A stretch of DNA of 64,000 nucleotides, from contig BCHU01000009.1 in the NCBI GenBank assembly GCA_001599715.1, forward strand, positions 1,270,014 through 1,334,013. The letters are read 5' to 3'. Shown here one piece after another: positions 28,321 to 57,659 of this stretch (positions are counted from its first letter, which is position 1; each line of letters opens with the position of its first letter). Origin of the DNA: Phaeotremella fagi (lineage: Eukaryota; Basidiomycota; Tremellomycetes; Tremellales; Phaeotremellaceae). A program made the position numbers and the translations under genes. Under the pieces are notes generated by a model. It was given only the letters and a program-made list of their open reading frames with translations. It was not told the origin of the DNA and ran no database searches.

Positions 28321-30159
28321 ATGGTTCAACCAGCATGGTACAAGCTCATGTATGTTGGAAGGAATGCTGGGCGAATATTCCGATCGCGAGTGATACTGCT
28401 TATCCTACTACCTGTATTTGCATTCTTGCTGTACAACGATTTCTTTTCAGGTTTCTTGGACCGAGTGCATGGCATGGCATTGTTTTCATCCCAGCCTCGA
28501 CCGCTATACGCTGGTGCTTTGAAATCTCTGGGTAGGAAAGCGCATCTCAGAGGTAAGTAGATTGTCCCCATCTCATTGTGTTGAAGATGGATTATTGATC
28601 GGTGTATGAACAGATAATCTGGATCCCAAAAAGAAATATCTCATGGCCTTCTACGGTGGTGGTTTCACAAACCAAAACATCATGCTAGATAATCGTAAGC
28701 CCAACGTCTACAAACTGAAGGGCGACTAATGGATTATAGACTTGCACGCAGCTTTACGAAGCTCTCGAATTCCCATCGTACCGATTTTCCTTCCAAATTC
28801 TCATATGAGAGGCGGAGGACAACTAGACCATGGCCTTCATCCTTTCGACGTTTTCGATTTCGAACTGTTCCGTGAATTAACAGGTATCCCCATTGTCCAA
28901 TACGATGATTTGAAATATAACGTCAACTCTGGAGAAGATCTTTTGCCAACCGATGAAGCTCCTGTCAAAGAAGATATCCCATGTTGGGGTGCCATTCAGG
29001 CCAAAAACTCGCAAGGTGATCAGTATTTCTTCCACCAACTGTGCAAGAACTACATGTTTGGTGAGTATGATCTCCAATGTTTGACAAACTGTACTTACAT
29101 TCAATCCTTGCAGAACTTATTCGATGGCCAGTACCGCTAAGCACGATGCACAACGGTCTCAACTCTGAAGCTAGTTACGGCGAACTGGTTGAGCTACTCG
29201 ATCCCAAGTCAGAAAAATCGGCTGCTTGGATGACTGGAGACTTTATTTCTCAGGAAATGCAAGACCTGTTCACTTCTTGGGGTTCTAAACTTCCCGTTGG
29301 ACCTCAACCTGATATGAAGAACGATCCCTTAGGTTGTGTCGACGAATTCTACTACTTTTCGGAACGAAAGGGAACAATCGTCGGTGATGCTCTTATCAGT
29401 GAATACCTCGAAGCTCCACCAGATGGTGCATGGGCCAGCGTTGGTGTCAAGCTGAGGTGGCACCCAAGACTTCACGAAGAAGCACGAGTTTTCCTTAGAA
29501 CTTTGTTGGGCCTTGCACCAGGCGCAGAGGTACCTCCTTACTTTGCGATCCATATTCGCCGAACAGGTATGTTGCTTTAGACTGCAGTGTGTTTCTGACA
29601 TTCTTGCAGATCAGCAACCTAAAAAATGCTTGGATTTCTTGGCAACGATAGACGACATCGAGTGTCAACCTCCTTCAAAATATATCAATGCCATGAATGA
29701 AGTCAGAGAAGAAGCATTGGCTAAAGGGGTAATCACTGAAGATCAAGAAATCAAAACTTTGATCATGACCGATGAGACGAACAAGGAGTTCATGTGAGCA
29801 CCCATCAAGTGTATAAATACTGAACCCCTTACAGACAGTATTTCCGTAACAAGGGATACATTGTCATCGATCACACTGAGCTCAACACTGATGAGGTGAC
29901 GGACAACGGATGGTAAGTGGAGATTGATCTTTCTGTAATCTGATACTCATACTTCTTCAAAGGAAACAACTTCTATGGGATACCATTCTGATGGGTGATG
30001 CAATCGGTTTCGTTGGATTCGCTGGATCTACAAGTATGTTTCCCTTACTCCTAACGTCTGTTTCTTGCTAACACTCTCACAGTGAGCGTGTTCGCAGCCC
30101 GTCGAGTAGCCGATTGGCATGGGGGGGTATATAAACTGATTTGGCGAGAATGGGCCTGA
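28321..30159 (+). CDS. O-fucosyltransferase-like type II membrane protein (subtype B, copy 1)
   Basis: About 490 aa in eight exons. ATG at 28321 is followed by a basic stretch and a hydrophobic anchor (VILLILLPVFAFLLY). Then come YLMAFYGGGFTNQNIML (N-terminal nucleotide-binding loop), SSRIPIVPIF, WASVGVKLRWHPRLHEEAR, YFAIHIRRTD (HxRR motif), IMTDETN and GFVGFAGSTMSVFAARRVADWHGG (C-terminal GDP-sugar loop). These are the O-FucT-superfamily landmarks. Splice sites fall at the same places as in 54486-56004, its closest relative here. It opens the glycan block and is followed in tandem by a PC-esterase gene at 318 bp. It probably acts in the Golgi; acceptor unknown. Confidence 0.82.
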
Positions 30160-30477
30160 TTGTATACGTTGGAATTTCGTTTTCGTTTCAGGGGTCGACA
30201 GGAGAAGCATTGTGTCGAGATGATTTTTTTATCAGAAAGATTGAATATCTAGTCACCAGTATAACATCTCTTTTCATTGGTTGTGGTCATATGAATCGAT
30301 ACTAGTGTCAGTTGCAGAGTGATGCATTCAGTCTATGAAGTCAAAGTCATAAAGATCCAGGGAAGAAATGCGTACTCGTAGCGCGCCACAAGAATTCAAT
30401 AGGTTCGCGCTTCAACGCGATAGGATTTCGCTATCCCAACTTTTCTCTTCTACATCTTAACACGAAGCACAAGGAAA
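30160..30477. other. intergenic between O-FucT-like and PC-esterase genes
   Basis: 318 bp between tandem genes. It includes a palindromic GCGC-rich spot around 30378-30385. No coding or RNA feature seen. Confidence 0.45.
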
Positions 30478-32155
30478 ATGGGTAATCTTCATCGTCGAAC
30501 TTTGCTGCTTGTAGGAGGGACGGTGATACTAGCATGTTTCTGGTTGAAGGATGCTACTCATAAGTCGTCCTTACCTCTCGCAGAAGATGTCTTCAAAACT
30601 CCAATTGTGAGTAATTCGGTGATACACAGACGTACTAATCTCAAATACAGCCACCACGCCCAGATGCCTGCTCCCCAGCCGAATTTGCTGCTCTTGATTG
30701 GGAGATGCCCGCCAAACCAGCGACCACTATTCCCGAGTTGCTTGAAGAATGGAATCTGGGTGTGAGTGTTGTGTTGTGTTTCATCGGAAGCCCTGTATTC
30801 ATACGAGTTCCTAGCAACACGGGATTTGGAACGACTGTCCCTCTTTCCCACCCACCCCACCACAATACACTCCTGAATATGACGCTTGGTTTTCAGGAAG
30901 GTTGGTAGAGGTCGGGCAATACAGAAGAGTGCGCCCGTCGTGTAGAATCTATGAGCCTTTTGCTCGTGTCATGATCAAAAGACTTTTGAGGTCCAAGGCT
31001 GGTCTAGTGTGAGTTTAAGCTGTTGAACCCGTAGCAAAATGCTGACCCTGCCGTTAGCACCATTGGAGGTTGGTGACATCATTCACAAAGTGCTGACCAT
31101 TCAGATTCGTTAAACACCCACTACTATAACGTCCTTCGGAATGTTCTTCTCGCTGCTAACGGGCTCGTCCAGGAGAGATGGACAGAGTCCCAATGGCGAG
31201 GAGTTTTCTTAGACATGAACCATCCTGACGCCCGTGTGTTGTTAAAGGAAGCTGGTGTTCCAGAATCTAGGGCGAAACAACCACTTGTGACCGACTTTCG
31301 TGTGTTCTACTTGTTGGAACCTCAAGAGGTCAGATCAATCTTTGGTTCCAAATATCGTCATCGATCGCAGCAAACGCAATCCTTGTGGCCGTTCTACTCT
31401 GAGCTAATGCTCGGAGCGGACGCAGAGATTGAAGAATCGCTGGATGCTAAATGGGAGAAGAATGTTGTCGTGGCCAACGGCGGGGCTCATTGGAATTATG
31501 TAGAGCTAGGGTTTGGGCTCACCGACGAAGACTTGCTCTCATCGTATCAATCAATGGTACGTTGGCTTCTGTTGATGACGCTGTGTTTCTGACTTGGCCT
31601 TGTAGTCGGAGATCATGATCCACAAATTCCGCTCGCTAGAAACCACGACTCCTATCCAGTATTATTGGCGAGCTACTTCGGCCGCTCACACCAACTGTGA
31701 ACTCTTCAATAAACGTGAGTTCACGCGAGTCACCGGGAACTGACTGGCGAAGCGAACAACACTCGAACGTCTGGTAGTGATCCAGCGAATCCCGACGATA
31801 AGCCGTATCAATGGTGAGCAGTCTTGTAAAGGCATTTGGACCGTATCTGATTTCTCTAGGCATCTTTTCACTGACTTCAACGACATCATGCAATCTGTCA
31901 TTCGCAAAAGCGCTCGATCATGGACGTCTTATCGACATCCACCAGTCAAGTATCTCGACGTTTGGCATGTAGGAGTCACGCGACCTGACGCTCACATGCA
32001 ACCGTTGAACGACTGTCTCCACTACTGCTCGGTGGGTGTCATGAATGAATGGATCAGAGTGAGTTCCCCAATCTTTTATTCAGGGCTACCAACTGAGTCT
32101 TCAGCAATTATGGCATATGATCATCTTGGATTCTCACTTTGACGATTATTACTAG
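30478..32155 (+). CDS. PC-esterase/GDSL acyltransferase-like membrane protein (copy 1)
   Basis: ATG at 30478 with a short N-terminal anchor (LLLVGGTVILACFWL). The spliced lumenal region holds RPSCRIYEPFAR, then VTIGDSLNTHYYN, a GDSL block I. This block is created only when a 34-38-nt intron near 31071 is removed. Near the end, DVWHVGVTRPDAHMQPLNDCLHYC is the Asp/His block that defines PMR5/TBL/CAS1-type PC-esterases, which O-acetylate cell-wall or capsule polysaccharides. The last exon ends WHMIILDSHFDDYY, stop at 32153-32155. Exons are small and introns 38-60 nt. It converges with a paralogue at 32530. The catalytic Ser, Asp and His are all present, so it is probably active. The acetyl acceptor is unknown. 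Confidence 0.8.
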
Positions 32156-32529
32156 CGGTTCTGGGTTTCAAGTTAGATCATTACATCGGATCAAGGAGTT
32201 GTGTGTCTAGGGCAAAACATGCTCCGGTGTTTCAGCTTATTGATGAGATGTACCAGGAATGCTACTTGTCGATAGACATACTATCAACATTCTTCATTTA
32301 GCAGTTGTCTTGGGTCAGCAGCGTTACTTTTCGTTCAAAGTCCCTTCTGTGAAACGTTTAGACGTTTAGTCAGAGTGTTCACTCATTTGAACTCGGTTTC
32401 AAGAGGGAGCAACATGGCCAAGGGTGAATGAAGGGTCACCTTTAATTACAAGCAAATTGTAAAAAATTACATCTCAGGAAATCTATAGCTGGGAATTTAT
32501 ACCACCAAGTCTCTCAGTAGTCGTGATTT
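32156..32529. other. intergenic between convergent PC-esterase genes
   Basis: 374 bp of AT-rich 3' flank shared by two converging paralogues. A short near-repeat ACGTTTAGACGTTTAG lies near 32354-32369. Otherwise I see nothing. Confidence 0.45.
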
Positions 32530-34290
32530 CTACTCTCTTGGATGATTTGATGCCAAAGCAGCTGTAACCATGTCAGCGCTTGCGAAAATTCGTTTCCCGT
32601 TATTCAGACAACCTACCGTTTGCCATGCGTTTTGTACACCAGGTTGACACCAATGGAGACAATCTCCAGCAGGTGTGAGATGAGCTTCAGGTCGTTTCAC
32701 TGACATTGCCCAAACATCAGTAATCCTGTAAGGGGGGTTAGGTCCGGTACCGGCGAATATTTCGTCGAATGCGGCAGGGGAGCGTTCAGCCGAGTGATCT
32801 TTCATAGCGAAGCCATTCATCCAAGGGAAATGTCGACTGTGTGGGGTCAGATCAATTTTCATAAATAACAGTCCTCCGCCCTACTGGTTGTATGGTCCTC
32901 GATCGTATTGGACTGGTGACAAGTAGTCGGTTCTGTCATTGTCGACTACAAAATGAGTTACGTCCAACTTTGCACACTTACATTCTTCGTGAACTTCGCA
33001 ATCAAAATGACCAGGAGCTGTAGTTCTCCAAAACGCCGCCATGGGGTAAGGCATTTTTAAAATCTTCCTGTGGAAAAATTGCATCTACTCTCTTCAGTAT
33101 ATGTTGTATCACTAAGAGGCACTCACGATTTTTCGATAAGATATGTAGACATCTGCAGCGATGACGGAACCTTGCTCCTTGTAATGCGCTCCCATGTTCG
33201 CAACAAAAACGGTTGGTTCCTCCAATCCGTTACTGACTCTATGATTGGGAACCATGGCCATCAGTTCATCGACGATAGGATCCCATGGTGGGAAATCGGC
33301 GGGTAGATCACTCTTGTAACGACCGTTGGTGAAATTGAAGACTTCGTCAAGTTCCGGAACGTCAAGCAGCATATGATGACGGTAATATGTGAAAATCGGA
33401 GCTGCAGCTCGAACCATATCTACACCTGCTTCCTCGATTATACCAGGAACGTCTGGATGATCCAAGTTGAGAGAAATAGTGACAGCACCACCCCATCCTC
33501 CGTCATGAAGGAGACCATCACCCATAAGGGTGGAAATCACAACGTAAGAATGGTGCTGAGTGAGCGAGTCTGATTGTTGTTAATAAACGACAACGTCAAC
33601 TGGGAATTTCAACTGACCTCCGACGAATCTAACCAAAGTGTCAGTTCATGAAGATCGCACATCATCCATTCACTCACATGATACCTCCCCTAGCACGTAA
33701 AGACCGCTTGATAAAGGCACGACGAGACTCTCTGTGAACTTTACAGCCAGGCCGTGAAGGTACGAAACGATGGGACGCCGTGTAACGCATTCGTTCTTTC
33801 CCCAAAGTTATCCATTCTGGATGTTCAGCCCAATGAGCGTTGTAGATGACACGATCTTGATCAAGATTGCAGAAGAGATCATGGGGATTCTTCAGAGGTG
33901 TCAGCTGGTGATTGACAACGAAACCTACCAGGTAGTTGTACATTTCCATGACTTCCTCATCGGTTTCTGGGACCGGTCCACGAACCCAGTGACCATTGAC
34001 AATCTCGTCAACGGTGCAGACGCCAGGTCGAGATGTGAACACTTCAGCGACTCGCGACATGTGAGCTTGAGAAAGGGTCAGATCAATGGGACGGAGTGAA
34101 TGATCGTATTGAAATCGTCCGACTCACCTGCTGCAGTTGAGTTGGTCTCATGTAGGATAGCCGTGCCAAAGATTACAACGGCGACAGAAGCTAACCCGAC
34201 GTAGAGTTTGTTTCGAACAGCCATTTTGCTCATTCTATTCGCCTGAACAGAGAAATTGTCAACGAGGTGGTACACCGCTTCGCTGGGCAT
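32530..34290 (-). CDS. PC-esterase/GDSL acyltransferase-like membrane protein (copy 2)
   Basis: Paralogue of the convergent neighbour. The N-terminal anchor is KLYVGLASVAVVIFGTAILH. Lumenal blocks: SRPGCKVHRESRRAFIKRSLRARGG, then MFVGDSLTQHHSYVV (GDSL block I), TVFVANMGAHY, MAAFWRTTAPGHFDCEVHE, HFPWMNGFAM and TDVWAMSVKRPEAHLTPAGDCLHWCQPG, the PMR5/CAS1-type Asp/His block. Stop at 32530. The first Met at 34290 is 18 codons before MSKMAVRNK. A TATAAAA on the minus strand lies only about 22 bp upstream of 34290, so the real start may be Met at 34236 or 34227. It probably modifies a glycan with acyl groups in the Golgi. Confidence 0.82.
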
Positions 34291-35507: not shown

Positions 35508-37562
35508 ATGACCAGTGCCATATCTATGTTGGATGGATGGGTTGATCGTTTCTCTTCTTCATATCCCCTCGCCTCGGCACCGATCGTTTGGTTTCGTCGT
35601 GTTGCCAGGCAACAACGAAGACGTACCGTTGTAATGGCTACTGTCTTTTCACTCTTGATATCGTTAACGACAGCACACCACATGGAGCTTGTCACTGTTG
35701 ATGACATACGCTCAGTCGCTTCCTACACCTCCTGGGGTAAACCTGGTATAGATCCTGGCCTTCGTGAAAGGCAAAGGAGTCAATTCAATCTTTTGAAGGA
35801 GAATGATTTTGATCTGACGTGAGCTGGCTATCACTTTCCTGTATGCCAGATGCTGACTTGGATAGACACGTTTGGGGTGCTTGGCACAACGCAGAGACAA
35901 TGATCAAACTAGAAGCTTGCATGAACGGTACGACAACTTGTCCAGAACGTCCAGTGATCTTGTCAAACTACATCTACATCGGTGCCCTCTGGGAAGGTCA
36001 CATGCCCGGAGGTGAAGTAATTTGGGTTACCAGTATTGTACGTGATGAAACTTGGCGTAACTAACTCACTCTAGATCGAAGCGTTGGAAGAAGCTGGATA
36101 CTTCATCTTGAACGTACAGAACATGCCAAATTTCCTGACTACGACAAAACTCATCCCAGATCTGGTGCACATGTATTGGACAGACGAGAAACGCATTTTG
36201 TTCTGTTTGTTCGATCCTCGTTGTATCTCTAAAGAGGACTATGTTCCAAATATCGGCGGGGAAGATTTGAGTATAGGTGTCCCCGATGACGAACGAGGTA
36301 CCGTTCAACTTTCAAGACTGTTCTGTACGACGTGGTGGGGGAATTTCCCTCAATCTTGGGGCAACGGTTTCTCTGGTCTACTTGGACAAAACATCGAAGA
36401 CGACAATTGGAGTTGGAGTCCGTTAGGACGAGCCTGGTCTTTAACGTAGGTGGAAACTGATACAACGTCACTGATCAAGCAGCCCGTACGCTTATCCCAA
36501 CAACACTTTTATGCCAATGTCAGTGGAGAAAGTTTGCATGCAATCGCCTTACACTCCATATGGTCAACGAGACAACGTCGCCCTCGTTTACGCCAAACAC
36601 TCTGGTCAAATCAGAAATTCTCGTATTCCTCCAGGATTCTGGGAGTCCCCACTAGCCAAATTTTTACCATTTGATTTCCTCTCTACCGCTGAAGATCAAG
36701 GACCAGACGATCACCTCCCCCCAGGATTGAAAACTATAGGTCACATGAATAGAACCGACTATGATCATCTGTTAGGCAGAGTCAGAGCTGTCATTGGTAC
36801 TGGACAACCTACGGTCAGTCCGACGGTCTACGCAGCGTTGTAAGTTGTCGTGTTTTATTTTGGATATCACTAACGACCACAGGTGCCAAGGGACGCCAGT
36901 GGTTCTACCAGCATGGTGTGAAATGAATGGAGATCCTAAGACGTTATGGGGACTGTAAGTGGTCGTAAGCATACCTCACTCATTCTTTCAGTGCCTGTTC
37001 CCAACATGCTATGGCCATAGCTCTTGGAGAACCTTATGTTTATGCTTACCAGGCGGACAACGAAACGTCTTTAGCTCAGGCAGTGGCCAAAGCTGTTCAA
37101 CAAGATATCGGTCGATAGTGAGTTCACCAATGACTGGCCAGTTTCTAAACCACGATTAGCATCCCACCTGATATGAAATATGACTTTACTGCCAAGCAAG
37201 TCCGAAAAGTTCTCGAATGGGACTTTGTTGGAGATGCGGCAAAAGTTATCAAAGCGAATGGAGGTAAAATTCCTGCACACCCTGATAAATATTTCAAAGA
37301 GTTGGTCAAATCCAACCTAGGCCAGATCGAAAAGGCAGAACCAGGACCTGTTCTTCGATGGACGCCTGAGATGATGAAGCAAAAAGTGTTTATCAACAAG
37401 GTTGAAGAAAGACATGCGAAGAAAAGTCAAGTGATCGAAACCTCGGAATTGGATCGACCTCTTCCTTGGCCACATGGATCAGATCAAATGTTCTTCGGTA
37501 ACGTCGAAGATCGTGGTGGATTGAACGATGTTCTCAGTGGATCGGTGGTCTTGTCTCGTTAG
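35508..37562 (+). CDS. GT18 (MGAT5-like) glycosyltransferase (copy 1)
   Basis: About 600 aa over seven or so exons, with a type II anchor around residues 44-62. The C-terminal half resembles alpha-1,6-mannosyl-glycoprotein 6-beta-GlcNAc transferases (GT18). RVRAVIGTGQPTVSPTVYAAL followed by CQGTPVVLPAWCEM matches the family's nucleotide-sugar block, and SQHAMAIALGEPYVYAYQADN then IPPDMKYD matches the last block. The N-terminal half has THVWGAWHNAETM, a MPGGEVIWVTSI element also present in copy 2 (as TTGEVIWQTSL), and CLFDPRCISKEDYVP. The first intron (51 nt) joins FDLT to HVWG. Stop at 37560-37562. It is likely a Golgi transferase that adds GlcNAc or a related sugar. Acceptor unknown. Confidence 0.75.
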
Positions 37563-37742
37563 GTATGCTAGTGATTTTAGATTTGTGTCAAATAGATAAT
37601 TCGGATGCATGATTGTATCGTGCGTTGAGTCCTGGGCCAAAATCAGGATCAAATGCATAAGGACATTAGGAGTCTTGTCATATATAATAATACAATCAAT
37701 TTTAGCTACAAACAACACCTAAACCCAAAACTTTGGTTCAAA

Positions 37743-39370
37743 TCACACAGGTATCATGTCTAGAATCCGCCCAAAAGCCTGAGCATTGGCGTCGTTAAGG
37801 TCTGTGCGGTACTTTGACCAAGACCAATTGTTTCTCACGCTGTCACCATAGAAGGGATCCGTTGGGGCTTGTCTGTTTGGCCAAAGTTCGTGACCAAGTC
37901 GAAGACGGTTGATGGTTTCGATTTCAGAAAGTGTCGGGGGTTGACTGATGTAGGATGGTTGTCCCAAATACGGATAAGCTTCTAACACGTCTGCGTCCAC
38001 TAGAATCGAAGTTTGCGCAATGACCGCAGCGGGTACTGCAGCAGACGAGCGATGCTCTATATAACTGTCTCCGGAAAATGCAGGTAGGATAATGTCCTGA
38101 ATGTTAAGATAACTCTAACACGTTACTCACCATGTCCCCAATCAACCGATAGAAGCCTTCGTAATCTTCGTCGACGTGTTTGACGACAATTGGTGAACCT
38201 CCGTCTACAGAGTGTAAAAGTTCAGGGGGTGTAACGACCAAACCTTCGTCGTAACCGATGAGATGGAGGGTGAAGGGAGGGAATTCTGAATCCACCAGTG
38301 GGATAAATCTGTTCAACGCGGTGGATCCAACGCCTTCTGATTTTTCGATACGATAACCCCAGGATTTTGGATCGGCTAGAGGTTAGATTGATCGTCATCA
38401 AACTTACCTAGAATTGCCTTGTGCAGTTGTCCAATGATTCGATCGTATTGTCTACCTTGATGCATTCGACCTAGGATGGCAGCCTTTGATATCATTTGTC
38501 GCGGGTTATATTTTCGAGGTGGAACACCTGATATTGGAAAGACCTAAAGTGAGCCAAAAACCTCCACCCGACTTACTGGTGCAATGTCCATCACTTGGAC
38601 TTTGTTCCATTTCGCTTCACCTTTCTCCTTCCATCCTTGGATGCTGTTTTGTAACGATGTGGTCGAATGCGATGACAGGGTGAGGAAAGTGAGACGTTCT
38701 TCTGCGGCTGGAACAGCAACCATTGAACGTGAATTGTCGTCGTCATTTCTGTAATGTTCAATCTCGTGCAGTAGGCAAACCACACGAAGATCTTTGCGAG
38801 TTGAAAAGGCGGTGATAACGTCTTGACGATGACCCCAGAATTTCGCGTCACCTGGGATGTAAGCACTAGCAATGGATTTAAACCTACAGGTGACTAGAAC
38901 AATAACGTCAAAGCTTCCTGCGGTGATGTCTGTAGCAAATTGATTTGGATGCCTTGGAGGGTTACTCTTGACGTCCCAGGTTTCTTCAATGACATTCTCG
39001 AAACCTCGACGAAGTTGTTCGCCTACGGGTCAGCGCCATCAATACTCTGATACCTACGATAGAACGAAGTGTTGACTTGTAGATCTTGCATAATGTTCAA
39101 GACTCCCCCAATGACCTCTGACATCAGTGACGTTCAATTTCCATACTCACCATCATGATAGAACGTATCCTCAAAGACACCGACGCGTAAGTGACCATAC
39201 TTGGGTACTGGTGGGGTGAAGACTGATTGAAGTGGTAGTTCCAGATTGCGACTATCGTTCAAATTGCGACTGTCGTTGTTGAGAACCGGTTGGACACTGT
39301 ATGAGCTGATGAAATGTACGCCTACAACACCAAGCACAAGTGTCACAAGCCTACGGTAAATTCGTAGCAT
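37743..39370 (-). CDS. orphan GT-B-like glycosyltransferase, type II membrane protein
   Basis: ATG at 39370 with a hydrophobic anchor (LVTLVLGVVGVHFI). The body is split by introns into eight or so exons. Features suggesting a GT-B fold are YGHLRVGVFEDTFYHDG at the start, DLRVVCLLHEIEHY, ISKAAILGRMHQGRQYDRI, FTLHLIGYDEG and, close to the end, DIILPAFSGDSYIEHRSSAAVPAAVIAQ. The last has the Gly/Ser/Ala-rich acceptor-loop style of retaining GT-B enzymes. Stop at 37743. I recognise the pattern from fungal genomes but cannot assign a CAZy family. Convergent with GT18-like copy 1 (180 bp) and divergent from copy 2. Confidence 0.6.
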
Positions 39371-44271: not shown

Positions 44272-44277
44272 TATATA
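44272..44277 (+). promoter_or_regulatory. TATA box of transporter gene
   Basis: TATATA about 56 bp upstream of the ATG at 44333, in the expected position relative to a short leader. Confidence 0.4.
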
Positions 44278-44332
44278 CATTGGATCAAAAGTACGTGAAA
44301 TTTAACTTTATCATCATCGCCAAATATTCAAC

Positions 44333-46146
44333 ATGACTGAATCCAAAGCTACAGGACTTGGTTTATTGTTATCTCCAAGATCGTCTACTTCGAATGAAGA
44401 TTTGGAAGCTGGTGAAAAGGGTTACAACGTTTCGGTTTCTTTGAACGATGGTGTTGATGAGGAACCAGAAGTTTTAGTCGCACCTTCGACTTTACCACAG
44501 GTGTCACCGTATATTATCAGTGAGTTGTGACGTGAAGACGGAACTAACTCTTAGTTCCTATATGGGTAAGTTAGATCGTCACAATAGAAACACCCTCTAA
44601 ACCTGAACAGATCAGTCTAAGCGGTGGTTTAATCATCTTCAACAAATGGATTCTCACCTCAAAGGGTTTCTCATTCGTGAGTCAGACTTTAAGGCAGGTA
44701 GACTAACGTGTAGCCAATTTTCTTGACCGCTTTCCACATGGTCGTTGCTGTAGGTTTTTATGAAGGACCCAACTCATTCGTTTAGATCATCGGAACAAAC
44801 ATTTTGAGATACACCACGAATCTTTTGGAGTCGGCAAAAACACCTTTACCTGTGAGTTAGGATCGTCGCACAGGTGCATCTCGCTGACCTGTCGCTAGAC
44901 ACGAATCTGGACTCGCACAATTATCCCCACAGCATTGCTCTACGCCTTCTCTTTGGTCCTTAGCAACATTGCCTACGTTCATCTCAGTGTTCCGTTTATC
45001 CAAATGATCAAAGCCTCAACCCCTGTGCTTTTGCAACTGATCTCTTTCGCTACTGGACTGGCAAGTAGGTTATCATCCGTGAACCCTACTGACGACAGAA
45101 ATGGACAAAGTCATGGGTGTCATCCTCATCGCCATCAGTGTCGGTTGCGCTATTGCTACCAGTGGAGAGCTTTGGTATGACACGATCGGTTTGACTTGTC
45201 AAATGGGTGCTGTAGTCGTGAGTAACTAACAGCTTCAAAGCTGACGTTCAGGCCGAAGCATCTCGTCTCCTTGTCATGCAAGTCATGTTGAGAGATATCA
45301 AACTCAACCCTCTTGTCAGTCTCTATTACTATGCACCTGTGAGTATGAGTTTGTGACAAACGCTGACAGTCAGACCTGCCTTGTTTTCATCGTCGCTGTT
45401 TTACCTTTCCTAGAAGGTGCTGAGCCATTCATGGCAATTCAAACCCTCGGATGGCCAATTTTGTTGATCAACGGGTTGATGGCGTTTGCATTGAATGTCT
45501 CGTCTGTCCTTTTGATCAGTTCTTCCGGTTCAATGGTTTCGACTTTGAGTGGGGTTGTCAAGGTAAGCTTCGGACATGGACACTGCTAACGTCAGGACAT
45601 CATCTTGATCGTTGTCTCTGTTGCAGTTCTCGGTGCAGTCATCACTGGCCAACAGGTGTTTGGTAGGTTTACTATAGTTAGCAAACTAACGTCAGGTTAT
45701 GGCATCGCACTCTTGGGCTTGGTCGCTTTCCGAAACAAGGACAAGATCGAAGCATGGTTGAAGAGCATGAAACCAGAATCTGGCATCCTTTTGACTGAAA
45801 ACAACGTTTCTGTAGGTGTCACATCCCTTCTAAGCTAACCTCACAGCTACCCTCACCTTTGATCAACTCTCGATCTCTCTTTTCGCCACTACTCTTTTCT
45901 CCCAAAGTCAGTATGGACGAAGAGGATCTTGACCTCCCGCTTTCCAAACGTCAAATGAACGAAGAACCCGAAAGAAATTGGCGCCCAGTAAATCGTCGTA
46001 CTGTCCTGCTCCTTGCCAAGAGAGTCGGGATCTTTGCAATCTTCCTGGCACTCATGTTAGTGGGACATCGATTTCTTTCACAATACGAAGTGCAGTGGAG
46101 CTCAGGGATTGGTTTGAATTCAGGCAGTGAAGCTGTGGTTTCGTGA
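44333..46146 (+). CDS. TPT/DMT-type nucleotide-sugar transporter with extra C-terminal segment
   Basis: Member of the triose-phosphate-translocator/nucleotide-sugar transporter family (Golgi antiporters bringing GDP- or UDP-sugars into the lumen). The spliced protein has an acidic cytosolic tail, then IPIWISLSGGLIIFNKWILT, PIFLTAFHMVVA, a middle pair with LLYAFSLVLSNIAYVHLS, MIKASTPVLLQLISFATG (the KxSTPV signature), GVILIAISVGCAIATSGE, EASRLLVMQVMLRD, LNPLVSLYYYAP, LISSSGSMVSTLSGVVKD and GYGIALLGLVAF. About twelve short exons, several introns only 35-40 nt. After the last family helix, a 35-nt intron joins a 110-residue tail with one more hydrophobic segment (VGIFAIFLALMLVGHRF), which the family lacks. 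The substrate is not readable. Confidence 0.82.
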
Positions 46147-46582: not shown

Positions 46583-49500
46583 ATGATCAATTTTTCGATG
46601 TCGCTCAGAGCGCTAGCGACAAGAGCGATAGCTCTAGCACTTTGCTTTCAAGTAACAACAGTTGCTGCAGCTACATTCCCATGTACCGGGTGAGTAAGGA
46701 TTTGCTCGAGGTGTTCACTACTGACTAATCTACAGAGGTTCAGTCTGTATGTCCCAACAGTGTTCCCCACTAACAACCTAGACGTCGTGGCCCATCCTGA
46801 CGACGATCTGTTATTCCAGAGTCCTACACTCGTTCATGAAATCACAGCCAACAGATGTTTCACCACCATCTTTTTGACTTCTGGAGATGCAGGTGCTGGT
46901 TTGGCCTACGCAGAAAGTAGAGAACTTGGAAACGTCTACGCCTACGCAAACATGTTGGGAGTCAACGCAACTTACACAGATACGTATCAGATCATAGGAG
47001 GACAACCTGTTTTGGTGCGAACTTTGAATGACGCTCCGACTGTTCAAAGAATTCATTTCAGATTTCCAGACGGAGATTTAGACGCTAACGGTTATCAAGC
47101 CACAGAGTAGGTGCTTCGCAGTGACACGGCTGATTGTAGTTACGAATCGTTACGTCGATTGTATTTTGGAGATATCAGTACCATTTCTTCTATCGATGAC
47201 ACGGCAACCTTCACGCTTGCTGGACTCAAAGGTGCTATCACAGAAATCTTGACAGCTCGTGCACCGACCAACGTCCGAACACTCGATTATCTCAGTGATT
47301 ACGATGGAGGAGATCATCCTGATCATCTTACAGCGGCGAGGATAACAGCAGGACTTGTTGGAAATGCAAATTTCGCAGGGTACATGGGTTATCCAAATGA
47401 GGTAGGTTGTTTGTCGATTCAAAGCTGATCAGTAGAATCTCCCTGCTACCATGTCAACCACTTCAACCGATTATATCAACAAAACCAACGCGTTCTATGC
47501 CTACACCCCGTATGATTATGTAAGTAAAGTTGGTGATCAGGCTAACCGTTAGATGGTGTGTCAAACTCCTTCCGTCTGTAACAGTCAAGGTTATGGTCAA
47601 TGGTTGCAGAGAGAGTACATCATTACCGCAGCTTTGGCCACTCATTCGAACGCTGGGTTCGCCCAAACACCAGCAGTTCTTCCAGATGGATTGAATCTTG
47701 CTTTGCAAGCCACTGTCACTGCTAGTAGTGCCGCTGGAGGTCAACCAGCAAGCAAAGCAATCGACAACATCATCGGTGGTTACCCAGGAGATTCTAGTGT
47801 TGAATGGTCTTCTAACGGTGAAAAAGTTGGAGCTTGGATTACACTTACTTGGAATCAAACCGTTGCCGTCACGGCAGTGGTGTTATACGATCGGTAGGGA
47901 AGCTATGAGAGTTGTACTGATGTTTAGACCCAACACCAACGATTGGCTTCAAACAGGAACACTCACGTTTGACGATGGAACAACACAATCGTTCAGTGGT
48001 GTTTTCAACGACGGTACCGCGTCTGTCTTTTACTTGTCCCAAACACGTACCACCAAGTCAATCAAGCTCACTGTCAGTACCGTATCGTCAGCCACCAGCA
48101 ACATCGGTCTCTCAGAATTCCAAGTTTACGGTGCATTCGGTACCAGCGCAAACACCACCAACACCACCACCCCAACAACACCCCCCGTCATTGTTAGTTC
48201 AGTGGATCTCGCCATGCTCGGGACTGCAGATGCGTCAAGTTCGGCTGAGAGCACTGATCAAACCCCTGACAAGGCGATTGATGGTATCATCGACGGATAT
48301 CCAGGGGATTACACCAAAGAATGGTCCAGTAACGGCGAAGGTGTTGGAGCTTGGTGGGCACTGTCTTGGGCGCAACCTGTTTCGATCAATCAAGTTGTCT
48401 TGTATGATCGTCCAAACCTTAACGATCAAGTGAGTTGGAGTGATGATTGGAGCTGACGACTAGATCACTTCCGGTGTTATTGCCTTTTCTGACGGTTCCA
48501 CGTTACCTATTACTACACTTGATAACGCTGGTGGTGCTACGATCTTCAATTTCACAATGAAAATGGTCGACGCGTTGATGCTTACTGTCACTGGGGTTAG
48601 TTCTACCACAGGGAATGTTGGTTTGAGCGAATTCCAGGCGTACTATATCTACAGTACAGTTCCAAAGTAGGTTAATGGTAGAATCTCACTGACAGCTAGC
48701 GTCTCGGTGGCTGACAACACCACCACAACAACTTCAACTTCTGCTTTGCCAACGGCGACGGTGAACGTGACCTCATCAACAGCCGTGGCCAATCTCACTT
48801 CTGCAATTTCGGCATCGATAACGCAGAGTATGAATTTGACGACAAGCGTTGGACCCACGAACGTGTCTTCATCGTCGACCGCTTCGATTACCAAGAGTGC
48901 AAATCTGACGTCTAGTATCTCTCCTTCTAACGTCACCTCGTCAATCGCGTCAGTGACCCAGAGTGCCAATGTTACATCGACTTTGTCCTCCAACACATCT
49001 TCAACAGCTTCAGCTACCCCAAGTGCCAACGTTACATCCAGTGTTGCAGCATCCAATGTGTCATCAACGGTTTCATCGACACGAATCAGTTCTGCCTCGA
49101 GCTCTGCCTCGAGTTCTGGGGTTTCAAATTCAACGGTATCGAAAGCTAGTTCCACTAGTAGTTCGTCTGGTTCGTCATCAGGAGTCAGCTCGTCATCAGG
49201 TGTCAGCTCTTCAAAGGCTTCCAGTGCAAGCTCTGGTTCCAGTACCGCCAGTGGTTCCAGCGCCAGTTCCAGCTCTGGTGCAAGTTCCTCGACACCCTCA
49301 TCCTCTAAATCCTCTTCTTCAGTTTCGAGTTCAAGCCCAAGCTCAAGCTCTGGTTCGACTTCGAAATCGAGTTCGAGCGTTAGTTCATCTGCATCCTCTT
49401 CGTCCTCCAAGGCTTCGTCAAGTTCCGCTTCCTCTTCAAGTTCTGCATCCTCTTCCAAAGCTTCATCATCATCTGCTTCATCGTCGGGTTCATCTTCCTC

Positions 49501-50323
49501 TTCCAAAGCGGCGTCCTCGTCCTCGTCTTCATCCTCATCTTCGGCGTCGTCAACCAAGGCCTCAAGCTCCAGCTCCTCTTCCAGCTCCAGCAGCAAAGCG
49601 TCTTCTTCCAGCTCTAGCTCAAGTTCGAGTTCATCCAAACCAGCGTCGAGTAGCACCATTTCATCAAGCTCAAGCTCAAGCTCAAGCTCAAGCACCAAAG
49701 CTAGTTCAACTTCGAGTTCCAGCTCGAGTTCCAGCTCCAGCTCAAGCTCCAGTAGCTCTTCCAAGGCTTCCTCGAGTAGTGTCGCGTCCAGCTCATCGAC
49801 ATCGACATCAAAGACCAGCAGCTCCACTTCCAGCTCGGCATCACCATCAGCATCCGCTGTTGACTTGGCTCTGTCCGGTTCAGCCAGTTCTTCGACATAC
49901 AGTGTGTCAACTGGCCAAACAGCTGCCAAAGCGATCGACGGTATTATAGGTGGATATCCAGGTGACTACACGACTGAATGGGCGTCAAACGGACAAGGTT
50001 TAGGTGCTTGGTGGGCTGTTCAATGGACTTCAGCAACCACTCTCAACCAAATCGTTCTCTACGATCGACCAAATCTCAATGACCAGGTAAGTGCTTTGTG
50101 CAGATGGAAGATTTTTGCTGACATTGCGTAGATCACTGCAGGTATACTCTACTTCTCGGACGGCTCGTTCTTAACTGTCCCTGCACTGGATAACGCAGGT
50201 GGAGCCACGACTATCAACTTTACCGCTAGATCTGTCACTTCAGTGTTACTTTTGGTTACAGGTGTTAGCAGTACGACGAGTAACGTTGGGTTGAGCGAGT
50301 TCCAGGCGTACTACGTGAAATGA
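46583..50323 (+). CDS. secreted PIG-L deacetylase with three discoidin-like modules and Ser-rich stalk
   Basis: Nine exons (46583-46689, 46744-47106, 47140-47401, 47436-47519, 47553-47893, 47928-48429, 48464-48666, 48700-50086, 50132-50323) give 1146 aa. An N-terminal signal peptide (ATRAIALALCFQVTTVAAA) means entry to the secretory pathway. Residues 48-300 are a PIG-L/LmbE zinc deacetylase domain with AHPDDD at 52-57 and HPDH at 216-219. These enzymes remove acetyl groups from GlcNAc. Three galactose-binding, discoidin-like modules follow at about 318-455, 480-615 and 1006-1146, each with K/AAIDxIIxGYPGD, EW.SNG...GAW and LSEFQ. Modules 2 and 3 are separated by about 380 residues of nearly pure Ser/Ala with Thr/Lys, probably heavily O-glycosylated. 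Sits between transporter and GT18-like copy 3. Confidence 0.85.
48700..49860 (+). repeat. serine-codon-rich low-complexity coding tract
   Basis: Part of exon 8 of the PIG-L gene. It is an irregular run of AGC/AGT/TCN serine codons with Ala, Thr and Lys, encoding the stalk between discoidin-like modules 2 and 3. The reverse strand is by consequence free of stops and gives a false Glu/Leu-rich frame. Confidence 0.9.
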
Positions 50324-50811
50324 GAGGTTACGGAGGTTTGCATGATCTGTTTTGGGATTACGTTGTATCTTTCACATTCCTACTAAAGTCCGTTCCTATT
50401 TCGATGTGTATCATACGATAGATGGGATGTATTCCTTACCCCACGTTGCTGGGCACTACTCGGAGCCCTATGCCAAGGAACATTTTAAAGGGTTCCACCA
50501 AAAACACGTGAAAATTCCTGGAGTAATTGCAGAGCGGGACAGGCACTTTCGTAGATCAATTGAATTTTACGTTATCTTTCAAGAGTCGTATTTCGACAAT
50601 ACAGGCGATCTCAAGACTGTAACTCAACGGGGAAAGGAGATGACGAGATGAGGACGGGTTTTCTTTAACGGGGGATTGACACTCTCCTGTACAGATCAGG
50701 TAGTCAGAACGGAAATCCAGGGGTCTTCAAAATGAGTAGATCTTTCCACTCTTTACTTTGTCATCTATCACCTTCTCACTACACTACAACCTACGACTTG
50801 GAAAAACTAGA
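50324..50811. other. intergenic between PIG-L gene and GT18-like copy 3
   Basis: 488 bp. A 99-codon open frame at 50352-50651 has no recognised motif and no plausible splice partners. I treat it as chance or a relic. Pyrimidine-rich leader sequence precedes the ATG at 50812. Confidence 0.45.
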
Positions 50812-52371
50812 ATGGGTCAAAATTCATTATGGTCAGCAAGAATAACTCGATATTTCAGTGCATTCATTGCATTGTATATCATTATTTTCTTATCGTCATT
50901 GAATAAAGTGAATGACATTCTGATACACTTTATTAAAACACCGGGATCGTTATTAGATCTCACGCAAATCGATGTCAACCTTTCAGCTGATCAACCTGTT
51001 GGATCAATCTACATGAACACAATGCGAGGTGGAGTGGTCTCGAAAAACATTTTGACAGAACAGAAACTTCAACTAGAGCTCCGAACCGCCAAGTGTGGGG
51101 AGCAAAGGTCGACCCAAATGATCATGATTGGAAGTCGTTGGATCGAAGAACAATTCAACGGAAGGGCAAACGGAGAGGCTTATGGGTAAGAAACATTTCG
51201 GCGTAAGACATGTAAACTTCGACTGACCAACCGTCACAGGCTGATGTCAATCACAAGAGCAGCAGAACGATTGGGTCATCCAGTATTTTTCGTGCCGCCC
51301 TCAGATGACGGAGTTATGCATTTGGCCAGAGAATACAATCAGCGCTATCCAGGTTGTTTGAAACTAGTGCTTTCCGATGATCAACTTTCAACCAACGAAT
51401 TTCAAAACCCATCTCAATCAGGATCTGATCATCTTCCAGCCCATCTTTTGATAACTTTTGATTATTTCGGAGAGTGAGTGATAAGACAGAAGGCAGAGTC
51501 ATTCAACTGATCACTCAACGACTAGTCCATGGTTCCTTGAACAAGCCTATGGACCAGGAGGTGGTGATGTACATTCACCCCTTGGACCCAGTGGTGTCTT
51601 GGCGGTCAATCCCTATCCAAAGGTGGAAGGATTTCACGGTATACCATTTTCTATCGAGGGTTCTGTCATCGGGCAACATCCCATTGCTCTTTCTGAACGA
51701 CCTGGTGCTTCCCTGACCGCTGGGGATCTACCGCGAGTATACATATTTGGAAAATTCACGTCATATCTCATCGAAGGAGCCTGGTCGATACAAGAGTTGG
51801 CAGAAGCTGCTAAAGAAGTTGGTGTGGAAATCTTCCTTGCGATGGAGGACAACGCAGGTATCGGTGATCAATTGGTCGAATTGGGGATACATAACCACGG
51901 CAGATTGAGTCCTTCACAGTTTTATCAAGAACTCGCCAAGAGTAGAGCTTTGATAGGGTTGAAGAAACCATACGTCTCGCCGACGCCGTACGAGGCTTTG
52001 TTCTTGGGTGTTCCGGTAAGTTTCATGGTTTGAGCCAAGCTAAATGTTTAGTTCCTCAATCCTATCGTCAAATGGGACGAAGAAAATCCACAAGACGAAA
52101 CCAAATGGACCATGCAACATCCATGGTTGCACGAATCCAAGGCGTAAGTGAAGCCTTGTGAAGGTGTCTGACTCCCAGTCCACACGTCTACAACGTCTTC
52201 TCGCACGATTTGGAGGGGTTGAAAAGGAATTTGATACAAGCCATCGATGAGGAGTTCGACAGCTTCATCTTACCAGACATGACACCGTCAGCTGTTGATC
52301 GTCGAGTTGCAGAGTTTATAGATACCGATTGGGAAGCCGAAGCTCAGAGTTATCTGAGTGCGAGGGGTTAA
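50812..52371 (+). CDS. GT18 (MGAT5-like) glycosyltransferase (copy 3)
   Basis: About 470 aa in five exons, start at 50812, N-terminal anchor FIALYIIIFLSSL. This copy is shorter and the most similar to animal MGAT5 in its last 250 residues: PYPKVEGFHGIPFSIEGS then VIGQHPIAL, RVYIFGKFTSYL, HNHGRLSPSQFYQELAKSRALIG, then KKPYVSPTPYEALFLGVPFLNPI, QHPWLHESKAPHVYNVF and FILPDM. The Gly-hydrophobic-Pro-Tyr then Glu-Ala block and the QHP block are diagnostic of GT18. It lacks the EDLSIGVPD segment shared by copies 1 and 2, so it is a separate subfamily. It ends 123 bp before the next gene on the same strand. Confidence 0.78.
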
Positions 52372-52494
52372 ACTGTCATTTAGAATGTAGATTGTGTATG
52401 TATCTTGTTTCCCTTGAGGAGGAGGAGCGGGATCAATTAAAATCCGATCAATTAATACGCGATCAAAGTAAAGTTCCTTCTCTACCAACATCTC

Positions 52495-54360: not shown

Positions 54361-54485
54361 CTAATACGTAGTATATCAGGTCATTGTTGTAACCGTAGAT
54401 GTGCGCTAGACTTTGAAGGTCAAGATGGTAGATCACCTGTTAATAAACTCGGACTGTTGCCAATGCCCAAAACTATATCCTAATA

Positions 54486-56004
54486 TCACCTTCTTCCCCA
54501 GATAATCCTGACCACCCCGTTATGCCAATCAGCTACTCGACGAGCTGCGACGACGCTCACTACAGATTTAGCTCAATGCCGTGAAATGACTCACTGATGG
54601 ACTCGCCGAAACCCACGAAACCAGTTGCATCACCCATGATGATGGAGTTTCGCAAGTGCCTTGTTGGTGATCAGCTGGAGATTGAAGAGAACCTACTTGT
54701 CTTCCTGCTCATACTCGATCACGATGAAACCTCGTTGCCTGAAATAATGACTACGTCTCAGTGCTGCCTTCCCACGACCTACATGAAATCCTTATCCGTC
54801 TCATCCGTCACAACAACCGTTTTCACCTTTTGATGACGCGAAATGAGACCTTTTCCAATGGCCTCCTTTTCAACTTCAGCCAGTGCGTCGAGATACGGTT
54901 GACAAGGTGGATCGTTTAAGCGACACTCGTGTTGATCTACCATCAGTAAAGTCCTTGACACCACCTACCCTTCCGCCTGATGTGAATCACAAAATACGGA
55001 GGTATTCTGGCACCAGGATTCAGCCCCATGAGTTCTCTCTGAAACACCCTGGCCTCTTCTAGAAGCACCGAATGCCATCGAAGATGAACCCCAACATTTC
55101 TCCACGCTCCATCAGGTGGACCTTCGAGATACTCGCTAATGACTGCGTCGTCAAAAATCGTCCCCGGACGTTCAGACGCGTGATACAAGTCGTCGAAACA
55201 GGCTATCGAATCGTTTTCCATGTCTGGGAGTTTCCCCTGAGGAAGAGGTGATTGCCAATTGTCGAGGAGTGTTCTCATGGCTTTGGACACCACCCAATCA
55301 GGCTTCACCCATGATTGGTACCTTGCAGACGTGGGATCAAGTAGTGCGGAGAGTTCTCCAAAGCTGGCTGTCGAGTTTTCGTGATTGTGGAATGCTCGTA
55401 GATACACTGGGAATCGAACAACCTCTGTAGGTTAGTGAGAGTCATAAGTTGACGTACCTAGTTGAAAAGACTCTGTCGTCGGATGAAGGAATTTGTCGAT
55501 ACCCAGTTTGTTCTTGGTCTGAAGCAGACCCCAACATGCGAGGGTTTCTTTTTCAGAAGCCGTGCAAGATTGATCATGTTTCAATTCGTCGTATCGAACA
55601 AGGCCTCGACCGGTTACACGGCGATATTGGGTAAAGTCAAAGACGTTTATCGGGTGAACACTACCAAAAGGTGGAACAATCGATGTACGATTAGATTTCG
55701 CTGCTAGATGTAGATCTGGGGTTAGACTGCGATTACGCCAACTTACGATTACACATCGTGACAAACTGGTCAGTGAATCCACCGCTATAAAAGCCAGCTA
55801 AGAATCTCTGCGACGGGTCCAAGTTGTCTATAATCAGGACCAAACATTCCAGAACCCACCTCGCAGTCTTGGCTTTTGGCCAGTTGAAACCAAGACATCA
55901 GCGCTCAGTGGACCATCATTGTACTTGTCGATGGTTGGTCGTGAGATAGAGTAGACAAAATACAACACGATGACAACTAGCACCCATCTTCGAAGACGGA
56001 TCAT
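54486..56004 (-). CDS. O-fucosyltransferase-like type II membrane protein (subtype B, copy 2)
   Basis: Paralogue of 28321-30159. ATG at 56004 followed by the anchor WVLVVIVLYFVYS. Landmarks: DNLDPSQRFLAGFYSGGFTDQ (nucleotide loop, with TDQ where copy 1 has TNQ), SNRTSIVPPFGSVHPINVFDF, WRNVGVHLRWHSVLLEEAR, YFVIHIRRKD, VVVTDETDKDF, then HYFRQRGFIVIEYEQ, and GFVGFGESIMSVVAARRVADWHNG. Two differences from copy 1 stand out: RRK for RRT in the HxRR block, and GES for AGS in the C-terminal loop. One intron (near 54947-54978) is only about 32 nt. The stop is at 54486. Frames join without a break, so it is intact, but substrate preference may have shifted. Confidence 0.8.
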
Positions 56005-56064
56005 GATTGTAGAACATTAAATGGCTGCGCGTCGATTTCAGGGCTTCTACGCGTTTACATAACA

Positions 56065-57659
56065 CTACTGACACGCTCCCAGTTTATCCAAAACATCATC
56101 GATCACAGCGTCCAACCCATCCGTATGGAAATAATGAGCCATGTCGGTCTTCAACGGATGCAGGTTGAACGGTAGGAGATGGGTAAATTGATCAACCAAC
56201 TTCCAATTCGCTGTAGCTTCCACCCTCGCAACGACAATATCTCTCCACCAAGCTAAACGGGGGATCGTTCGATGATCTTTATAAGCCATAATATACGTGT
56301 CATCTCTCGGAGGTGGAGGAGGAGCTGTAGCAAAGACAACAGGAGGGAGATTCGGACAGTTGTCAATCTTTTCCAGAAAATCAAGATCGGACATGAACCG
56401 TAACGTCGTGTTGGAAATAGCTGGATGTTGTCCAAACGAAACAACGACTCCGTCGTATTTCAAGATCTCGGTGCAGTTCAGAGCCTGGTCCATATTTTTG
56501 GCGAAAGAATCCCACACATATGTCCAGCGTGTTTTGCCAAAAGTCACGTTCCGTTCGCCGTATTTTTCCTAACGTCAGGATATGCTTATTGAGTTACTCA
56601 CAACATCGCCCAGTTGGCTCAAACTACCGTTCAGGCGATTGATCAACCCCTCGTAAAGTATTCGTCCATGGGAATCCCCAGTAAAGTAGTAATGTCGATC
56701 CTTGACCCCCTCACACGCCGAGTGATCTGCGAATCTCACACCAGCATGGCGATACACACAGCCGTCTGGATGAAATCCGTAGATTCCTGAAAACCCTGCC
56801 CTCGCCAAATCGTCGTGATCCCTGAGGACGTGACTTGGATGTCTTGGCAAGAAAGCACCAGGTGTTGGATGTCGAGATGTGCTGCAAGGTGGTGTGGTAT
56901 CGGGTACAGGCCAATCCTCCACAGCGATTGCAGTTGGACGTAGCAATTCGTGGATCGATTTTGAATCCTCTGAAGGAGCTAGATGCATTGGGCAGTCCTT
57001 GCATTGTGGTAGGACGTAGGGAGTGGATAGCAACGGTTCTTTGAGGACATTGGGCCAAGTCGGTGTCAATTCGTCCAACCCTTTGTAGTCCTAACATGAG
57101 CGTTGAACGCCCCACGACCCACCTCGTACATCAAGAACATTTCCAAAGCAGCACCCCCACCGTTCTGCAAAGCAACGTCAAACCGGTATTGACACTTTCC
57201 TCTATCATAGGCGTCCGCATTAACGCTGGTAAACTTCTCTGCCCCGTTGATCATCAGCATAAAGTCAAAAGGGCCGTGGGTAAGTGTTTTGACCTTTTGT
57301 TGTTCCAACGACTTTAGGTATTGCCTAGGCTCCCTCCTACAGATATCTACATCCCTTGCTTTTATATACACCGTGAAAGCGTTGCAGCGATCTTGCTGGT
57401 GACAGATGGCGACATCAAAGTGAGGTATCGACGTTGACCCAACGGGTTTTGGTCGTGAACAGGTGACGGATGAAAACGGTGAAGGCGGGTAGGAAAAGGT
57501 TGAGTACCGGGGGGTTTGAGGGGAGGGGCAGTAGGTTTTGGTGTTGTAGTTGACGCTGGAGTGTCGTCGGTAGATGAAGCCAAGAAGTAGAAGTAACAGG
57601 ACGAGTCTGATACGTTTAGATCTAGGAATGAGGGTAGAAAACCGCTTTCGAGCGGCCAT
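56065..57659 (-). CDS. NXPE/PC-esterase-like SGNH protein with N-terminal Ig-like domain
   Basis: ATG at 57659, anchor IRLVLLLLLLGFIYRR. Residues about 100-190 look like the filamin/Ig-type domain that precedes the esterase domain in NXPE proteins (HGPFDFMLMINGAEKFTSV, YDRGKCQYRFDVAL, ALEMFLMYE). A Cys-containing linker then leads to a C-terminal SGNH domain with HYYFTGDSHGRILYEGL (block I, Ser nucleophile), YDGVVVSFGQHPAI (block III style), and DMAHYFHTDGLDAVIDDVL, where Asp and His of the catalytic pair sit. Only two introns, near 57085 and 56578. It is the last glycan-related gene before the telomere-proximal region. A role as a glycan acyltransferase or esterase is likely; the acceptor is unknown. 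Confidence 0.7.

What the first reader, a model, noticed from the sequence alone, without database searches (positions are those of the whole stretch)
28321..57659. Thirteen-gene subtelomeric glycan assembly and modification cluster
Every gene I can support from 28.3 to 57.7 kb has a glycan or acyl-transfer signature plus a membrane anchor or signal peptide: O-FucT-like (three), PC-esterase (two), GT18-like (three), orphan GT-B-like, GT32, nucleotide-sugar transporter, PIG-L deacetylase and NXPE-like. No unrelated gene interrupts them. Glycosylation genes are usually scattered in fungi, so a run of this length with importer, transferases, deacetylase and acyl-modifying enzymes looks like a biosynthetic cluster for a surface or secreted glycan. 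The families are seen in the sequence; the shared pathway is inference.
Basis: partly seen in the sequence, partly recalled or inferred. Interest (0 to 1): 0.9.

Follow-up and report, generated by a model that had tools for sequence, protein, structure and literature searches.

The report
Chromosome-end sugar-chain gene cluster
Near one chromosome end of an unnamed fungus, thirteen intact genes in a row look mostly like the parts for building and decorating an unknown, possibly fucose-containing sugar chain, a kind of gene grouping that is seldom reported in fungi.

Summary
I built 13 complete spliced gene models (A-M) at 28321-57659 with no other gene between them. Ten of 13 match a glycan-related Pfam family at E <= 1e-3, six above the curated cut-off; K is a homologue of A. 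E and M match no family, so 'GT-B-like' and 'NXPE-like' stay unproven.

Two results favour a shared pathway. The genome's only over-cut-off GDP-mannose 4,6-dehydratase (GDP-fucose synthesis) lies 7 kb left of the window, between further O-FucT-like genes.

Best reading (inference): a Golgi route to a fucosylated, GlcNAc-containing, O-acetylated glycan, partly de-N-acetylated by a secreted PIG-L enzyme. Product and co-expression are untested; no shared promoter motif was found. The locus extends left (GT61, O-FucT at 16-4233), with housekeeping genes between. Short introns and raised GC3 also mark a telomere-side gene without any Pfam match, so they are not specific to glycan genes. Ten paper searches listed no description. 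New variant of a known kind.

The parts
28321..30159 (+). A: O-FucT-like type II membrane protein, 498 aa, 7 introns, HIRRTD motif
   Evidence: Model; PF10250 E 5e-6, 26.7 bits, cut-off 31.5; motif
30478..32155 (+). B: PC-Esterase/TBL-like SGNH protein, 438 aa, GDS and DCLH motifs
   Evidence: Model; PF13839 24.5 bits, cut-off 27; 30% identical to C
32514..34224 (-). C: PC-Esterase/TBL-like SGNH protein, 436 aa, GDS and DCLH motifs
   Evidence: Model; PF13839 26.8 bits, cut-off 27; B+C profile weakly matches ESKIMO 1, E 0.009
35508..37562 (+). D: GT18-like glycosyltransferase, 603 aa
   Evidence: Model; PF15024 31.8 bits, cut-off 28; D/F/J profile matches MGAT5 structures E 2e-19
37743..39370 (-).
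   Evidence: Model; no family; two homologues, both Naematelia encephala
40137..42317 (+). F: GT18-like glycosyltransferase, 659 aa
   Evidence: Model; PF15024 29.9 bits; 54% identical to a Kwoniella heveanensis protein
42581..43854 (-). G: GT32-type DXD glycosyltransferase, 367 aa
   Evidence: Model; PF04488 38.8 bits, cut-off 23
44333..46146 (+). H: TPT-family transporter (nucleotide-sugar transporter class), 469 aa, 11 introns
   Evidence: Model; PF03151 74.4 bits, cut-off 30; no PDB sequence match
46583..50323 (+). I: secreted PIG-L-type deacetylase with three DUF7402/F5-8C domains and a Ser-rich linker, 1137 aa
   Evidence: Model; PF02585 38.2, PF24135 483.7, PF00754 58.5 bits, over cut-off; HPDDD and HPDH motifs
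50812..52371 (+). J: GT18-like glycosyltransferase, 460 aa
   Evidence: Model; PF15024 41.9 bits
52495..54360 (+). K: O-FucT-like type II membrane protein, 534 aa, HIRRTD motif
   Evidence: Model; no Pfam hit; 28% identical to A, E 1.4e-36
54486..56004 (-). L: O-FucT-like protein, 424 aa, HIRRKD motif
   Evidence: Model; PF10250 20.5 bits, E 4e-4, cut-off 31.5; 47% identical to A
56065..57659 (-). M: orphan, 509 aa, GDSH motif, SGNH-like at most
   Evidence: Model; no family; hhalign to B/C probability 0.8%
16..1752 (+). GT61 gene, 420 aa predicted (may be cut by the window edge); left group of the locus
   Evidence: Automatic model; PF04577 42.2 bits, cut-off 27
2093..4233 (-). K-type O-FucT gene, 558 aa predicted; left group of the locus
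   Evidence: Automatic model; PF10250 31.8 bits, cut-off 31.5

Best explanation
A chromosome-end gene cluster encodes a large part of a secretory-pathway route to a fucosylated, GlcNAc-containing, O-acetylated surface or secreted glycan. Proposed order: GDP-mannose 4,6-dehydratase (just left of the window) starts GDP-fucose synthesis; H brings a nucleotide sugar into the Golgi; type II transferases (O-FucT-like A, K, L; GT18-like D, F, J; GT32-type G; perhaps E; GT61 further left) build and branch the chain; SGNH-type B and C, perhaps M, add acetyl groups; the secreted PIG-L enzyme I, bound to glycan through its DUF7402/F5-8C domains, removes N-acetyl groups outside the cell. Shown: intact genes, most families, co-location, linkage of the dehydratase. 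Inferred: the shared pathway, the order of steps, fucose and GlcNAc as donors, acetylation, extracellular deacetylation. No known integral-membrane polysaccharide synthase family was recognised among the 13, so Golgi assembly on a carrier is more likely than polymerisation at the plasma membrane.
For: 13 intact genes with no recognised unrelated gene among them; 11 of 13 assigned to glycan-related families; 0 of 30 control exon pieces hit such a transferase. The single over-cut-off GMD of the genome is at C9:1261746-1262870 between O-FucT-like genes; the stretch C9:1250093-1327672 is about 0.34% of the genome. Six of the seven loci matched by the O-FucT query lie in the last 84 kb of C9. GT18-like D/F/J resemble MGAT5, a GlcNAc transferase, which fits a GlcNAc-type deacetylase.
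Against: No shared promoter motif (26 of 300 random control sets as good). No expression data. Housekeeping genes separate the GMD/left O-FucT/GT61 group from A-M. GDP-fucose synthase was not searched for. A, B, C, L score under Pfam cut-offs, K, E and M have no Pfam hit. Tandem duplication explains part of the run. Other O-FucT-superfamily members lie elsewhere (C1, C6), as do relatives of D and G.
Confidence: 0.57

Rival explanations
1. A subtelomeric collection without a common pathway: fast-evolving, lineage-restricted glycosylation genes were duplicated and kept near a chromosome end, each acting on different glycans or proteins.
For: Paralogue pairs A/L, B/C, D/F; very few relatives for A and E; no shared promoter motif; the compositional signature is shared with a telomere-side gene that has no Pfam match.
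Against: Duplication does not explain six recognised families plus a transporter and a deacetylase side by side, the GMD linkage or the apparent D-E linkage in N. encephala.
Confidence: 0.25
2. The cluster serves the known tremellalean capsule (GXM-type polysaccharide) as an accessory decoration set rather than a glycan of its own.
For: A study of lichen-associated genomes describes a fucose-containing GXM-like polysaccharide in Tremella and a putative GER1 in its Tremella genome (PMC8355462, passages).
Against: None of the 13 showed a Pfam match to a GT69 or GT90 family, the families that paper gives for CAP59/CAP60 and CAP10. GT18 and a GlcNAc-type deacetylase suggest amino sugars, which GXM lacks (recalled).
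Confidence: 0.12
3. About the origin, not the function, and compatible with the others: the distal block was acquired or moved as a unit from a fungus with shorter introns and higher GC3.
For: Cluster introns: median 36 nt, 62% of 86 at or below 37 nt, against 54 nt and 7% of 419 in control genes. GC3 0.427-0.508 in the 13 genes against 0.368 +- 0.045 in 75 control genes. Left GT61 and O-FucT genes look ordinary.
Against: Genes A-C have near-normal introns (gene medians 46-49 nt); intron GC is also raised, as regional drift near a telomere would give; the control GC3 maximum is 0.467 and 3 of 62 control genes have a median intron of 40 nt or less. The GT18 tree does not resolve a donor.
Confidence: 0.3

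Closest known systems
Galactosaminogalactan (GAG) cluster of Aspergillus and other Pezizomycotina (uge3, gtb3, agd3, ega3, sph3)
   Same: Clustered fungal glycan genes with a sugar-nucleotide enzyme nearby and an extracellular deacetylase that acts after assembly (PMC4817252: abstract, sections 6 and 14).
   Different: Five genes with a transmembrane glycosyltransferase, epimerase, hydrolases and another deacetylase family; here 13 genes, and no Pfam match to those functions among them.
Cryptococcus/Tremella capsule (GXM) genes CAP10, CAP59, CAP60, CAP64
   Same: Enzymes for a surface glycan in the same order of fungi; a fucose-containing form is described for Tremella (PMC8355462, passages).
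   Different: No GT69 or GT90 match here. That capsule genes are scattered in Cryptococcus is recalled.
Fungal O-FucT (PF10250) subfamilies described in PMC10481521
   Same: Same superfamily; the arginine the paper finds conserved may correspond to the HIRR motif of A, K and L (inference).
   Different: A and L score under the Pfam cut-off and K not at all; the paper's section 8 describes secondary-metabolism or housekeeping neighbourhoods, not a glycan cluster.
MGAT5 (GT18) N-glycan GlcNAc branching enzyme
   Same: D, F, J pass the GT18 cut-off and the profile matches MGAT5 structures at E 2e-19.
   Different: Donor and acceptor untested; 250-residue similarity only.

Membership tests
Fungal biosynthetic gene cluster (glycan type) | Several distinct families of one pathway side by side | tested here: met
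   Six recognised families plus two orphans in 29 kb
Fungal biosynthetic gene cluster (glycan type) | Co-regulation | tested here: inconclusive
   No shared promoter motif in 11 unique upstream regions; expression not testable here
Fungal biosynthetic gene cluster (glycan type) | Conserved neighbourhood in relatives | tested here: inconclusive
GAG cluster | uge3/gtb3/agd3/ega3/sph3 families | tested here: not met
   No Pfam match to an epimerase, a polysaccharide deacetylase of another family than PIG-L or a glycoside hydrolase among the 13
GT18 (D, F, J) | PF15024 over curated cut-off | tested here: met
   31.8, 29.9, 41.9 bits against 28
GT18 (D, F, J) | GlcNAc transfer activity | not testable with these tools
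   Needs an enzyme assay
O-FucT superfamily (A, K, L) | PF10250 over curated cut-off | tested here: not met
   26.7, no hit, 20.5 bits against 31.5; relative at 2093-4233 has 31.8
O-FucT superfamily (A, K, L) | Conserved arginine motif | tested here: inconclusive
   HIRRTD in A and K, HIRRKD in L; equivalence to the POFUT arginine assumed
PC-Esterase / TBL acyltransferases (B, C) | PF13839 over curated cut-off | tested here: not met
   24.5 and 26.8 bits against 27
PC-Esterase / TBL acyltransferases (B, C) | GDS and DxxH motifs | tested here: met
   GDSL and DCLH in both; that these define the family is recalled
PIG-L deacetylase (I) | PF02585 over cut-off | tested here: met
   38.2 bits against 28.2, HPDDD and HPDH
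NXPE-like (M) | Family match | tested here: inconclusive
   No Pfam or NCBIfam family; only a GDSH motif
GT-B glycosyltransferase (E) | GT-B fold or family match | tested here: inconclusive
   No match; AlphaFold2 model of a homologue had mean pLDDT 39.5 and its fold search gave nothing usable

The most novel reading that the evidence does not exclude
The last 84 kb of this chromosome hold a nearly complete fucose-glycan programme: GDP-mannose dehydratase, transporter, six O-FucT-like enzymes, three GT18-like, one GT32-type and one GT61 transferase, an orphan, SGNH acyltransferases and an extracellular deacetylase with lectin-like domains. It would make a surface glycan class not yet described in fungi, and its distal block would have moved as one unit, as its short introns and codon composition suggest.
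Probability: 0.27. Interest if true: 0.82.

Novelty: new variant of a known kind. Interest (0 to 1): 0.6.

Why it matters
Few fungal polysaccharide clusters are known (recalled); the GAG cluster has five genes (PMC4817252). A cluster of this size with a link to GDP-fucose would give a genetic handle on an unknown glycan of Tremellales-like fungi, on what fungal GT18 and O-FucT-like enzymes do (a search for GT18, Tremellomycetes and glycosyltransferase together found 0 papers), and on how glycan pathways assemble near telomeres.

Tried and rejected
Shared promoter motif: an early k-mer count looked significant but counted the shared E/F and G/H upstream regions twice. With 11 unique regions and 66 control regions the best 6-mer was matched or beaten by 26 of 300 random control sets, the best 7- and 8-mers by 184 and 90 of 300. 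Rejected.

Fold of E: AlphaFold2 of its Naematelia homologue (two-row alignment) had mean pLDDT 39.5 and the Foldseek hits are not usable. Profile comparison of the E family with the GT18 and O-FucT alignments found nothing.

M as a relative of B and C: hhalign put GDS on GDS at probability 0.8%. Left open.

Horizontal origin from Mycena: D is 48% identical to Mycena proteins and 46% to Tremellales ones, but the GT18 tree leaves them unresolved. The tree was built with gapped rows and is discarded.

Gene finder: early settings split or joined genes wrongly. The 13 final models are curated by hand from finder output, splice signals and paralogue intron positions. Control and flank genes come from the automatic finder alone.

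Literature: 10 searches were answered. None listed a paper that I recognised, by title and abstract start, as describing such a cluster. The library holds open-licence papers only, and I read passages or sections of five.
Full report
Where it is. The window is the last 64 kb of contig C9 (1,334,013 bases) of a 22.6-Mb, 24-contig assembly and ends in telomere-type repeats. Best protein matches in Kwoniella, Kockovaella, Naematelia and an unnamed Tremellales species fit a Tremellales fungus; this is inference, and some best matches are in Mycena.

Gene models. The genes are rich in introns, so plain ORF listing shows little. I wrote a splice-aware finder trained on the window and 20 control loci, then curated 13 models by hand. 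All 13 (A-M) run from ATG to stop: 86 introns of 31-63 nt, median 36. Gaps between neighbours are 60-1283 bp.

Families. Pfam gives GT18 for D, F and J, DXD/GT32-type for G, TPT transporter for H, and PIG-L with F5/8C and three DUF7402 domains for I, all over cut-off. A and L match O-FucT, and B and C match PC-Esterase, at E <= 1e-3 but under cut-off. K is a homologue of A (28%, E 1.4e-36). E and M match nothing in Pfam or NCBIfam; E has no PDB sequence match, even as a three-row profile, and M only one short irrelevant hit at E 0.02. A profile of D, F and J matches MGAT5 structures at E 2e-19. A profile of B and C matches ESKIMO 1 weakly (E 0.009). Motifs: HPDDD and HPDH in I, GDS and DCLH in B and C, HIRRTD in A and K, HIRRKD in L, GDSH in M; the plain string GDS also occurs in E and I, presumably by chance. 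The roles of these motifs are recalled. A hydropathy scan finds an N-terminal hydrophobic segment in most (B, D and M are borderline).

Chance. Thirty exon pieces from 20 loci elsewhere in the genome gave 7 with any Pfam domain at 1e-3, one of them a glycoside hydrolase and none a transferase of these kinds. Between 5 and 26 kb of the window the finder predicts eight genes; seven were scanned: HIS7, SEC5, a succinate-CoA ligase subunit, a kinase, ribosomal L31, a membrane protein without a family and a low-complexity protein with one sub-threshold hit. Part of the A-M run is duplication, but six recognised families plus two orphans remain.

The locus is larger. GT61 and a K-type O-FucT lie at 16-4233. 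A whole-genome search with the latter matched seven loci: six in the last 84 kb of C9 (near 1250k, 1258k, 1273k, and A, K, L) and one on C1. A family search also found PF10250 matches on C6, one over cut-off. The only GDP-mannose 4,6-dehydratase over its cut-off (469.7 bits, 513.6 with its neighbour; cut-off 415) lies at C9:1261746-1262870, 7 kb left of the window and between two O-FucT-like loci; seven further pieces matched, most of them weak relatives under the cut-off and two of them pieces of the same gene. GMD with GER turns GDP-mannose into GDP-fucose (PMC8092308, passages). This is the strongest sign that the O-FucT-like enzymes use fucose. Housekeeping genes do lie between this left group and A-M. 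The sequence between C9:1250k and the window could not be read.

Relatives. D has seven database homologues at E <= 1e-3: two Mycena, four Tremellales, and one unnamed. E has two, both N. encephala. The best E homologue (tag 513001) and the N. encephala D homologue (513030) both carry contig length 1,646,047; the second E homologue lies on another contig. That fits one contig, perhaps close neighbours, but it is not a map. A has one distant homologue at E <= 1e-8, 26% identical, in Mrakia. Each search scored only about 8,000 candidates, so weak relatives may be missed. F is 54% identical to a K. heveanensis protein. In this genome D has relatives on C2 and C3, and G on C8 and C2 with weaker ones elsewhere. 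E, M, PC-Esterase and DUF7402 were found only here; these six-frame searches give lower bounds.

Compositional signature. Cluster introns are short (62% of 86 at or below 37 nt) against 7% of 419 control introns with median 54. GC3 is 0.427-0.508 in all 13 genes against 0.368 +- 0.045, maximum 0.467, in 75 control genes. The left GT61 and O-FucT genes look ordinary (introns about 60 nt, GC3 0.33-0.35). The gene at 58087-61968, without a Pfam match, shares the signature (two 36-nt introns, GC3 0.420), so it marks the terminal block rather than glycan genes. A-C have nearly normal introns. Drift near the telomere and acquisition as a block both remain possible. Cluster models were hand-curated and control models automatic, which may add some bias.

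Mechanism. The parts fit a Golgi route: sugar nucleotide made in the cytosol, transported by H, chain built by type II transferases, acetyl groups added by SGNH enzymes, N-acetyl groups removed outside the cell by I. In the GAG pathway deacetylation makes the polymer cationic and adhesive and appears to be extracellular (PMC4817252: abstract, sections 6 and 14). I could act alike here, by analogy only.

Against a shared pathway: no expression data, no shared promoter motif, no product, GDP-fucose synthase not searched, conservation tested on two genes only.

Novelty. Ten paper searches listed no paper that I recognised as describing such a cluster. The closest system, the five-gene GAG cluster, shares no family that I found. 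I rate it a new variant of a known kind.

Noticed in passing
35508-61968: Many very short introns (31-37 nt) against a control median of 54 nt, with raised GC3 and intron GC; shared by the gene at 58087-61968 that has no Pfam match.
   Followed up: partly
G000:C9:1261746-1262870 (left of the window): The only over-cut-off GDP-mannose 4,6-dehydratase of the genome, between O-FucT-like loci.
   Followed up: partly
13550-15900: Predicted membrane protein with a GGS motif reminiscent of SGNH enzymes, no Pfam family; it might be another acyl-modifying enzyme.
   Followed up: no
58087-61968: Large low-complexity protein with a duplicated Cys/His-containing segment and no Pfam match.
   Followed up: partly
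62018-62688: Four copies of a 166-bp tandem repeat just inside the telomere.
   Followed up: no
G000:C2:941907-943605 and C3:1633008-1634243: Further GT18-like genes related to D elsewhere in the genome; their neighbourhoods were not read.
   Followed up: no
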